This document shows positions 25,762-28,384 of a stretch of DNA of 64,000 nt, piece after piece. The stretch spans positions 744,001 through 808,000 of the forward strand of contig NZ_CP084090.1 of NCBI RefSeq assembly GCF_020217425.1, in the 5' to 3' direction. Origin of the DNA: Halomicrobium urmianum. Its GTDB lineage: Archaea; Halobacteriota; Halobacteria; Halobacteriales; Haloarculaceae. Position numbers and translations under genes: made by a program. The notes below the pieces were generated by a model, which was not told the DNA's origin, did no database searches, and saw only the letters and a list, made by a program, of their open reading frames with translations. The stretch's first letter is position 1. Each line of letters opens with the position of its first letter.

Positions 25762-26274
25762 ATGGACAGCCGCGAGTACGCGTTCGAGGGGACGGAACCG
25801 GACCTGCACGGCTACGCCCACGTGAGCCGGGAGGCGACGCTCGTGGGCGACGTCAGCGTCGGCGCCAACGCGAACGTCTGGCCGGGCGTCGTCCTCCGCG
25901 GCGACGTCGGGCCGGTCGAGATCGGTCGCGAGAGCGCGATCGGCGACAACGCCGTCCTGCACGCCTCGACCGTCGGCGAGCGGGCGCTGGTCGGCCACGG
26001 CGCGATCCTCAACGACGCGACCGTCGAGGACGGCGCCCTGGTGGGCTTCAACTCGACGGTCAGCGACGCGACCATCGGTGCCGGCTCCATCGTCGCGATG
26101 GGAACCGTCGTCCCGCCCGGGTACGAGGTCCCGCCGGAGTCGTTCGTCCGGGGGACGCCGGCCGCGGTGACGCCGCTCGCCGAGACCGACATCGACGCCG
26201 AAGCCGTCTTCGAGGCGTTCTCGTCGGGCGACTACGCCAACCTGGCCGACCGCCACGAGGACCTGTTCGAATGA
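25762..26274 (+). CDS. Gamma-carbonic-anhydrase-like hexapeptide-repeat protein
   Basis: A 170-residue left-handed beta-helix protein with hexapeptide repeats (VGDVSVGANANVWPGVVLRGDVGPV). It keeps the Arg and Asp of RGDVGPVEIG and the metal-binding His residues in LHAST and VGHGAIL, so gamma-type carbonic anhydrase or a related acyltransferase-fold protein is likely. The length is normal and the protein looks complete. Its TGA stop at 26272-26274 is also the first three bases of the TGACATCC end of the adjoining tnpB element. Confidence 0.88.
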   Translation: MDSREYAFEGTEPDLHGYAHVSREATLVGDVSVGANANVWPGVVLRGDVGPVEIGRESAIGDNAVLHASTVGERALVGHGAILNDATVEDGALVGFNSTVSDATIGAGSIVAMGTVVPPGYEVPPESFVRGTPAAVTPLAETDIDAEAVFEAFSSGDYANLADRHEDLFE

Positions 26275-26400
26275 CATCCTCCGCGCCCCGAAAGGCGCGG
26301 TTTCCTCCACGGGAGTCTTAGCTGGTCTACGACTCCCCAGAGGCAATATTCCCGTCGTGGTGAACGGTACTAAGGTCTGTGCGCTGTTCTTTGGGACAGT
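26275..26400 (-). ncRNA. Predicted guide (omega/re) RNA at the 3' end of the atypical tnpB
   Basis: TnpB guide RNAs are transcribed across the end of tnpB into the right end of the element, so one is expected here on the minus strand. The terminal hairpin at 26281-26300 would be part of it. This is by family rule only; the exact bounds are unknown. Confidence 0.3.
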
Positions 26401-27673
26401 GAGAGCGTGGTGACGCCGACCAGGTGTGGTCGTCCCACTCGAACCGCACGGGCCGTGCCATCGGCCTGACTGGTTCGTCCGTCTGCCGATCTAGAAACGT
26501 CTCCGACGCCGTTAGGTCGGCGTGTCCTTCGAATCCGCACGGACAGGTGAGCGTCTCCTGATGCCGTGTCGTTCGCTCTGTCGAGCCACAATGCGGGCAC
26601 TCCTGACTTGTCCACGCTTCTGACCGAACTTCGACAGAGATGCCGTATTCTTCGGCGGTACAGACCAGTCGCTCTGTGAACTGCTTGAACGCCCAGAAGT
26701 TGTGGGTCTTGGCGTTGGTCTCGACTGACCAGTGCCTCTCCAACACGTCGGTCAGACCACCAACGTACACGGTATCAACACCGACCTCGTGTAGTCGTTC
26801 TAGAATGTCACGACACAGTGCTTCTTGGGCGTGATCGCGGCGACGTGTCCGTTTCCGATATAGTCGTCGAATACGCTCGCTACTGCACCGAGCGTCTTCT
26901 AGCGCGGACTGTAAGTCGGCAATGTGGCGTGTCGTGTTGCGGAATCGCTCGAACAACTCGCGGCCTACGTACAGGTATTGCTGGCCGGTCGTGGTGGTAC
27001 AGGCGACGATGTTGTTCGCACCGATGTCCAGAGCGGCTTTCTCGGAAGCCAGTGGAGTCTCCCGCGCATCATCAGAAACAGTCACGGGTTGTGAAGCTCT
27101 GAAGGTGCCGTCGACGTCGTCGTACCACAGGTCTAACCGGCCCTGATCCTCGTACTCGGGCCAGTTGGGATCGCCACAGATTTCTAGCCGTAGTCGTTCT
27201 CGACGGCCGAGTCCGTACTTCTCTTTCAGTTCTTTGCCGACCAGCATCTCAAGCCGAGAACGCTCACCCCAGTCGACGGTGTATGCATCGTTGCGAATGA
27301 CGGTACGGAGTTGCCGGCCATCGTCCTGATTACCACGGAAGCCTGGCGGGTCCGGGTGCTCCGTGACAGACGTGTTCCCGGGGTCGTGGTATTGCTCTTT
27401 CAACCGGAAGAACCCACGCCACGCTTCGGTGTTTGTCCGAATCACCTGTTGAGCGGTGGAGGTACCGAGAACGGCCTTATATTTGCCTTCCAGACGGCCG
27501 GTATCAGCGTCCCACACGTCCTCACCCTCGTAGCCGTCTTCGCCGTTGTACCGCATGAGGCGCTCGTAGTTGACTTCGTTCCAGAGAGCGGCGGAAGCGT
27601 CCAACAAGTCCCCCAGCAGTTGCTTTCCGGACTCGGAGAGCGGTCGGACGACGAACGTGTTGGTACGCTTCAT
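26327..27673 (-). CDS. tnpB: TnpB-like protein lacking the canonical RuvC-II glutamate
   Basis: A 448-residue protein starting [15 protein letters not shown]. Start 27673 is chosen because the TATA box TATATAT at about 27696-27704 lies 25 bases upstream; 27685 and 27718 are alternatives. RuvC-I is present with D216 (ALDIGANN), the zinc ribbon is CPHCG...CPCG, and RuvC-III has D386 (HADLTASET). The RuvC-II motif reads [10 protein letters not shown], where the other TnpB of this window has HIVFEDLTHI. The catalytic Glu is therefore replaced by Gly305. A Glu352 in RSEAWTSQ, where the other protein has DPRNTSK, could be a relocated catalytic residue. Otherwise the protein is a nuclease-dead RNA-guided DNA binder. 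Confidence 0.88.
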
Positions 27674-27789
27674 CAACCAGTTCATGATTCCTTCCATATA
27701 TAAGTAAACTTCAGACATCCTGAGTGAAAGTGAAATAGATGTCGGGCCTTGAGACTCGCACTGAATACTACCGCGGTGGATTCTCGCCG

Positions 27790-28322
27790 GAGCGGGCGCA
27801 ATTTATATGCGGAGCAGGCGCAATACCACGCCGTTCACGGGGTGGATACGCGCCGTCACTCCTCGAAAGAGACCACCGTTCGAACGCCTCCCCGAGTTTC
27901 CCACAGTGATGTTTAAGTGACAGGCCGCCTTCCAGTGCTGTAGGAATCGGTCGGAACGGAGCGGATTCTGAACCGTCCTTCGGAGGCGGCCTGTCCGTCC
28001 ACGTAACGAGGTAGTATCCGAAAGAACAGTCGGTGAACGCCACATCCTCGACGGGTGTGCCAACGTGCCGACTGCTCAAAGCGAGCAAGACGATACCCCC
28101 AACTCTGCTGACGCTTGCTGGCATCCCGTGGCAAAAACAACACTGGGACGCCGTACACGGTCGAGGTGAGGGGTAACGGCCAGTTGGCATGGCCAGCAGT
28201 CCACCAGTCCGACGCTGTGGGACGACCCGCGCCCGAAAGGGCTGGTAGTCCGATGATTGGACTACAAACCTGAAACTCCCACCGCTCGGGATTCCTCCGC
28301 GTGAACGCGGAGGAGGATGTCA
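27790..28322. mobile_element. Palindrome-bounded non-coding element (element B), inverted relative of element A
   Basis: The element has no plausible gene. Its ends are hairpins of the same design as element A: CCACGCCG-TTCA-CGGGGTGG at 27826-27845 (one mismatch) and CCTCCGCG-TGAA-CGCGGAGG at 28294-28313, followed by GGATGTCA. Read on the minus strand it matches element A end to end in order, including the right-end flank (CCCGAGCGGTGGGAG), a TGTTGTTTTTGCCA block and the core at 27949-28024. It therefore belongs to the same PATE-like family. It fills the gap between tnpB and the ligase-like gene. Confidence 0.65.
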
Positions 28323-28384
28323 AGCTCTCCCTGTTGGCTCCCCGGTCCCAAAGTGTAAACCGCTCGCTCGCGCTACGGACGAGC

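What the first reader, a model, noticed from the sequence alone, without database searches (positions are those of the whole stretch)
26327..27673. TnpB-like protein that has lost the RuvC-II catalytic glutamate
Seen: the motif [10 protein letters not shown] stands where the other TnpB of the window has HIVFEDLTHI, so Glu is Gly305; RuvC-I Asp216, RuvC-III Asp386 and the zinc ribbon remain. Known: TnpB needs Asp-Glu-Asp to cut; some TnpB relatives work as nuclease-dead RNA-guided repressors (TldR), and others have a moved glutamate. Inferred: this protein is either RNA-guided without cutting or uses a relocated residue, for example Glu352 in RSEAWTSQ, where the other protein has DPRNTSK.
Basis: partly seen in the sequence, partly recalled or inferred. 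Interest (0 to 1): 0.62.

Follow-up and report, generated by a model that had tools for sequence, protein, structure and literature searches.

The report
TnpB with a relocated catalytic glutamate
This is a transposon-borne, RNA-guided DNA-cutting protein of salt-loving archaea whose missing active-site glutamate has moved 47 residues along the chain, an arrangement already known from Fanzors and some TnpBs; so it is a new member of a known kind, not a dead enzyme.

Summary
In detail: in the TnpB-like protein at 26327-27673(-), residue 305 is Gly where canonical TnpB has the RuvC-II Glu. It is not a local loss. In the haloarchaeal family the column is Gly in 81/82 proteins, Glu352 is present in 77/77, Asp216 in 81/81 and Asp386 in 76/77. 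Across 111 distinct haloarchaeal TnpB-like proteins, Glu is found either at the 305 position (25) or at the 352 position (86), never at both and never at neither. Glu352 fits the published 'Ealt' signature ExxxxxxCxxC exactly. In the cryo-EM structure of the Fanzor SpuFz1, the Glu in this place binds the catalytic metals. The protein is under purifying selection (dN/dS about 0.18). The last ~45 codons plus ~57 nt carry a constrained, covarying right-end RNA (putative omegaRNA). Copies sit at different sites, each with its own guide. Most likely it is an active RNA-guided nuclease of the known Ealt / RII-r TnpB class, so the TldR-type 'dead repressor' reading is not supported. Activity was not tested. 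By-products: a divergent 47-aa ribbon-helix-helix-like gene in about half of these elements, and next to the window copy a tnpB-less element that keeps an omegaRNA-like sequence.

The parts
26327..27673 (-). tnpB gene, 448 aa, Ealt (RuvC-II-rearranged) type
   Evidence: ORF; PF01385/PF07282/NF040570; relatives start at the same Met; AF2 fold matches TnpB/Cas12f/Fanzor2
27026..27028 (-). RuvC-I Asp216 codon (DIG motif, hence not the DPG Fanzor clade)
   Evidence: 81/81 in family
26759..26761 (-). Gly305 codon, place of the canonical RuvC-II Glu
   Evidence: Gly in 81/82 family members; aligned with Glu of Cas12f
26618..26620 (-). Glu352 codon, relocated catalytic Glu (Ealt), six residues before the first zinc-ribbon Cys
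   Evidence: 77/77 in family; both synonymous codons used, GAA 36 and GAG 17; exclusive with Ecan
26537..26599 (-). TNB zinc ribbon, Cys359/362/377/379
   Evidence: all four conserved in family
26516..26518 (-). RuvC-III Asp386 codon
   Evidence: 76/77 in family
26272..26470 (-). putative omegaRNA scaffold: last ~45 codons of tnpB plus ~57 nt beyond
   Evidence: synonymous divergence falls to 0.14-0.28 from ~0.5 with no fall in pN; covarying consensus structure
26281..26300 (-). 3' hairpin of right end / omegaRNA
   Evidence: compensatory changes in up to 21 of 46 sequences per pair
26252..26271 (-). guide segment (host flank, 3' end of the gamma-carbonic-anhydrase-like gene)
   Evidence: sequence diverges between copies exactly after GATGTCA(T); only exact match in the genome is this site
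27674..27802 (-). promoter-proximal part of the left end; distal LE interrupted by the neighbouring insertion
   Evidence: aligns with LE of relatives; the conserved LE terminus CTA[C/T]CT..CAGCGAGAGA is not found in this copy
27803..28323 (+). separate tnpB-less element (MITE) carrying a sot0042-like omegaRNA, abutting the left end
   Evidence: three further copies at 98% and one at ~86%; RF02656 match at 28135-28314, E 4e-8

Best explanation
The gene encodes an RNA-guided DNA nuclease of the known 'Ealt' (RuvC-II rearranged, RII-r) branch of TnpB. It is carried by a TnpB-only IS200/IS605-type element of haloarchaea that must be moved by a Y1 TnpA acting in trans. The active site is Asp216-Glu352-Asp386. 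Glu352, in the loop after the fifth RuvC strand, takes over metal binding from the lost residue 305. The protein binds the omegaRNA made from the end of its own transcript (about 26470 to 26272, minus strand), whose guide is the flank of the insertion. It is expected to cut DNA that carries the guide match next to a target-adjacent motif, that is, the empty donor site, and so to help the element persist. Shown here: sequence, conservation, exclusivity of the two Glu positions, purifying selection, RNA structure, variable guides, spread to different sites. Inferred: RNA binding, cutting, and the role in retention.
For: E352 invariant and G305 invariant in the family. No protein of 111 has both or neither Glu. 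E352 is the only acidic RuvC/TNB position at 100% in both Ealt groups and 0% in Ecan. Ealt proteins form one side of a branch with the trait columns left out (SH-aLRT 97, one change). Exact fit to ExxxxxxCxxC (PMC10711439). The Fanzor Glu in the loop between beta-5 and TNB, E541 of SpuFz1, coordinates two Mg2+ (PMC11423790, PMC10432273); in the AF2 model strand 346-351 ends just before E352. One RII-r5 TnpB cut dsDNA in vitro (PMC10278001). dN/dS 0.18, RuvC part 0.13. omegaRNA constraint and covariation. Distinct guides and sites. The second Ealt group in this genome carries sot0042-type RNA, an Rfam family built from transcripts observed in Halobacterium salinarum.
Against: No biochemical or expression data for this family. 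The model is moderate (mean pLDDT 77.7, pTM 0.56) and its coordinates could not be read, so no Glu-Asp distance was measured. Only one RII-r clade member is known from the held papers to cut, and it is not shown to be close to this family. The target motif is inferred from left flanks, not tested. This copy has a broken left end.
Confidence: 0.85

Rival explanations
1. Nuclease-dead RNA-guided repressor (TldR-like), domesticated to regulate a host promoter.
For: Canonical Glu is absent; TldRs arose several times from TnpB by RuvC inactivation (PMC13418256).
Against: A compensating Glu is invariant; the other acidic residues and zinc ribbon are under strong selection; the gene is multi-copy with element ends, each copy with a different guide; the window guide has no second site in the genome better than 3 mismatches; no fixed non-transposon partner gene was seen.
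Confidence: 0.04
2. Active-site relocation has narrowed the activity: a nickase, or a cutter of one strand or of another substrate, rather than a full dsDNA nuclease.
For: Authors of PMC10711439 suggest the moved Glu may reduce trans-cleavage of ssDNA; several TnpBs process omegaRNA but were inactive in the dsDNA screen of PMC10278001.
Against: An RII-r5 TnpB and Fanzors with Ealt do cut dsDNA.
Confidence: 0.1
3. This particular copy is decaying: the family works, but the window copy is stranded by the insertion into its left end.
For: Distal left end is missing or unrecognisable and the abutting element separates the rest; the end branch of this protein (0.18) is longer than that of most near relatives.
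Against: The ORF is intact, dN/dS against L020 is low (dN 0.11, dS 0.72), right end and omegaRNA are intact, and promoter-proximal sequence remains.
Confidence: 0.15

Closest known systems
Ealt / RuvC-II-rearranged (RII-r) TnpB, D-Phi-G clade (Yoon 2023 PMC10711439; Nety 2023 PMC10278001)
   Same: Asp in RuvC-I with DIG motif, no Glu at the canonical place, Glu six residues before the zinc ribbon, Asp in RuvC-III, IS200/IS605-type ends with omegaRNA
   Different: Haloarchaeal; which numbered RII-r clade it belongs to could not be checked because the classification paper (PNAS 2023, e2308224120) is not held; some relatives carry a divergent small gene
Fanzor1/2 and cyanobacterial pro-Fanzors
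   Same: Same relocated Glu; Foldseek matches mimivirus Fanzor2 9b0l (E 6e-11) and SpuFz1 8gkh
   Different: RuvC-I is DIG, not DPG; not IS607; prokaryotic
ISDra2 / ISFba1 TnpB and Cas12f (canonical Glu)
   Same: Overall fold and domain order
   Different: Position of the catalytic Glu
TldR
   Same: TnpB homologue without the canonical catalytic set in a simple alignment
   Different: Here the Glu is replaced elsewhere, guides are element flanks, and the gene stays in the transposon
Haloarchaeal sotRNA/omegaRNA elements (RF02656 sot0042)
   Same: Right-end RNA overlapping the end of tnpB
   Different: RF02656 matches the second Ealt group and the neighbouring MITE; the window element's own RNA is not matched by it

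Membership tests
Ealt (RII-r) TnpB | No Glu at the canonical RuvC-II position | tested here: met
   Gly305, 81/82 in family; aligned to Cas12f Glu
Ealt (RII-r) TnpB | Glu six residues upstream of the first CxxC of the zinc ribbon (ExxxxxxCxxC) | tested here: met
   E352-AWTSQE-C359-PH-C362; 77/77; rule in PMC10711439
Ealt (RII-r) TnpB | RuvC-I Asp and RuvC-III Asp kept | tested here: met
   81/81 and 76/77
Ealt (RII-r) TnpB | Ealt proteins separate from Ecan proteins in a tree | tested here: met
   One branch, SH-aLRT 97, trait columns left out; tree held haloarchaeal proteins only
Ealt (RII-r) TnpB | omegaRNA at the right end overlapping tnpB | tested here: met
   Synonymous constraint and covariation; expression not tested
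Ealt (RII-r) TnpB | Cuts DNA with guide RNA | not testable with these tools
   needs bench assay
Ealt (RII-r) TnpB | Glu close to both Asp in the structure | tested here: inconclusive
   AF2 model made, strand ends at 351, but coordinates could not be read to measure distances
Fanzor / pro-Fanzor | DPG motif in RuvC-I | tested here: not met
   DIG; Ile 76 / Val 5 at the second position in family
TldR | RuvC active site inactivated | tested here: not met
   Complete D-E-D set once E352 is counted; never neither Glu in 111 proteins; cleavage itself not assayed
TldR | Uncoupled from transposon ends, coupled to a regulated gene, guide kept for a host target | tested here: not met
   LE/RE in copies, different guide in each of four own copies, no second guide site
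Canonical TnpB | Glu in RuvC-II (xED/ENL) | tested here: not met
   Gly305

The most novel reading that the evidence does not exclude
The haloarchaeal Ealt TnpB elements are regulated two-gene OMEGA elements: a 47-aa ribbon-helix-helix-like protein, read divergently from the shared promoter, represses tnpB, and tnpB-less elements that keep an omegaRNA (such as 27803-28323) borrow or decoy Ealt TnpBs in trans.
Probability: 0.25. Interest if true: 0.5.

Novelty: new member of a known kind. Interest (0 to 1): 0.27.

Why it matters
It turns an apparent 'dead' TnpB into a clean, abundant archaeal case of the relocated glutamate, with strict one-or-the-other exclusivity over 111 proteins. Scans that score TnpB activity by the canonical Glu column alone would wrongly call this haloarchaeal family nuclease-dead. 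The own genome carries both kinds side by side (about 10 Ealt and 13 Ecan of 24 loci), which is useful for direct comparison in one host.

Tried and rejected
Dead repressor (TldR): rejected on the conserved replacement Glu, transposon ends and variable guides. Alignment error: rejected (two independent alignments, 81/82 relatives). Pseudogene: rejected for the ORF (dN/dS 0.18). Other acidic candidates for the third metal ligand (D280, E292, D309, E341, E342, E373, E382): none is invariant in both Ealt groups. H. salinarum record and the PNAS 2023 and Wiegand 2024 papers are not held. Rfam gave no convincing family for the window's own RNA (HgcC E 0.017, below its cut-off).

Full report
Observation. 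The ORF at 26327-27673 on the minus strand encodes 448 aa and matches OrfB_IS605, the Cas12f1-like TNB domain and the NCBI model for RNA-guided endonuclease TnpB. Where canonical TnpB has Glu-Asp in RuvC-II, this protein has Gly305-Gly306. Two independent alignments agree: against solved Cas12f chains and against the other TnpBs of the same genome. Asp216, Asp386 and the four zinc-ribbon cysteines are there.

It is a family trait. The window lies in a 4.25-Mb haloarchaeal genome with 24 TnpB-like loci. Five of these belong to the window's subfamily and all five have Gly at the 305 position. A scan of 84,980 species genomes gave 80 close relatives, all haloarchaeal by record title, 57-83% identical. 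Column counts: Asp216 81/81, Gly305 81/82, Glu352 77/77, Asp386 76/77, zinc cysteines all kept. Residue 306, the neighbour of the canonical Glu, is variable (70 Gly, 9 Asp). Relatives are patchily spread: three of six same-genus genomes lack close copies, others carry several.

The glutamate has moved. I collected further TnpB-like proteins from related genomes and aligned them with those of the own genome. Of 111 distinct usable proteins, 25 have Glu at the canonical place only and 86 at the 352 place only; none has both and none has neither. The set was chosen by similarity to the query, so the proportion is biased, but the exclusivity is not explained by that. Over the RuvC and zinc-ribbon half, E352 is the only acidic residue that is 100% conserved in both Glu-less groups (52/52 and 34/34) and 0/26 in canonical ones. 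With the trait columns left out, the two kinds form two sides of one branch (SH-aLRT 97, one change; quick tree, some long branches). So one relocation event, old within these archaea or older, is the simplest reading.

Comparison with the known. Yoon et al. 2023 (PMC10711439) define Ealt as a Glu six residues upstream of the zinc-finger CxxC, as against Ecan about 50 residues upstream, and split Ealt proteins into a D-Phi-G clade (TnpB) and a DPG clade (Fanzor, pro-Fanzor). E352-AWTSQE-C359 is that spacing exactly, and the RuvC-I motif is DIG, so this is the D-Phi-G Ealt kind and not a pro-Fanzor. Nety et al. 2023 (PMC10278001) list clades with RuvC-II rearrangement (RII-r3, RII-r5) and report one active RII-r5 orthologue. 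In Fanzor structures the Glu lies in the loop between the fifth strand and the TNB domain, and E541 of SpuFz1 coordinates two magnesium ions with D383 and D606 (PMC11423790, PMC10432273). The AF2 model of the window protein has a strand at 346-351, followed at once by E352 and then the zinc ribbon, and matches Cas12f, TnpB and mimivirus Fanzor2 by fold. Model quality is moderate and I could not measure distances.

It is maintained, with its RNA. Median dN/dS against 52 relatives is 0.18, and 0.13 in the RuvC part. Both Glu codons are used at 352 (GAA 36, GAG 17), so selection acts on the amino acid. At codons 407-448 synonymous divergence falls to 0.14-0.28 from about 0.5 while amino-acid divergence does not fall; most of this tail is predicted disordered (residues 414-448, pLDDT below 50) but its DNA is conserved. 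The RNA from there to GATGTCA folds into a consensus with 18 pairs showing changes on both sides; the last hairpin has up to 21 such sequences per pair. Beyond GATGTCA(T) the sequences diverge completely, as expected of a guide.

It is a transposon passenger. In 43 copies the left end is preceded by CTA[C/T]CT or a close variant, with random sequence further out; I take this as the target/TAM side. The four own copies with a right end have four different guides. Same-genus genomes show the uninterrupted spacer between the gamma-carbonic-anhydrase-like gene and the next gene. No Y1 transposase is encoded by the element; five are elsewhere in the genome. In the window copy the right end supplies the TGA stop codon of the interrupted gene (26272-26274), and the left end is interrupted by a separate 521-bp element, so this copy may now be immobile although its gene and right end are intact.

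Mechanism. Most likely: TnpB binds omegaRNA cut from its own transcript, finds guide-matched DNA beside the target motif, and cuts with D216-E352-D386, which would favour retention of the element at donor sites (inferred from established work on TnpB). The nuclease-dead repressor reading is disfavoured because a replacement Glu is invariant, guides are not fixed, the window guide has no second target within two mismatches, and no domesticated partner gene was seen. A restricted activity such as nicking remains possible.

Verdict. Ordinary in kind but nicely clear: a haloarchaeal member of the known Ealt / RII-r TnpB class. The new details are the large haloarchaeal sample, the omegaRNA limits, and two side observations: the 47-aa ribbon-helix-helix-like gene inside about half of the elements and the tnpB-less neighbour with a sot0042-like RNA.

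Noticed in passing
27803-28323 (+); further copies in L135, L136, L137, L138: A 521-bp tnpB-less element (98% copies at three other sites, one at ~86%) keeps a sot0042-like omegaRNA (RF02656, E 4e-8 here) at its right end, so it could load TnpBs of the second Ealt group in trans.
   Followed up: partly
L025, L026, L048, L053, L020, L022 and ~26 more family loci, directly upstream of tnpB on the opposite strand: A 47-aa ribbon-helix-helix-like ORF (MRPNIDISHTLGGRVKDYAEANDLDLSEAYTEVLEAGL...) lies divergently between left end and tnpB in about half of the elements, and was not found in second-group Ealt or canonical loci. No confident Pfam match. Absent from the window copy.
   Followed up: partly
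L031, L056, L068, L106, L109, L116: A ~75-aa CxxC zinc-ribbon-like ORF (M..PLTCYICG...) sits in the same divergent place, in three loci together with the 47-aa gene.
   Followed up: no
26960-27085 (codons 197-238 of tnpB): A second stretch of low synonymous divergence (0.24-0.32 against ~0.5), around RuvC-I; possible RNA or regulatory element inside the gene.
   Followed up: no
right ends of L034, L044, L051, L062, L068, L074, L081; left end of L026: The terminal hairpin loop carries an extra ~45-nt insert that looks like two further stem-loops (GTCGTCGGGC..GCCCGAC..GGGA..TCCC), recurrent in different host genomes.
   Followed up: no
26272-26274: The right end of the element supplies the TGA stop codon of the gamma-carbonic-anhydrase-like gene it is inserted behind.
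   Followed up: yes
L003, L010, L013, L016: The second Ealt TnpB group of this genome carries sot0042 RNA (two above Rfam's cut-off), so sot0042-type RNAs in this genome accompany Ealt TnpBs.
   Followed up: partly
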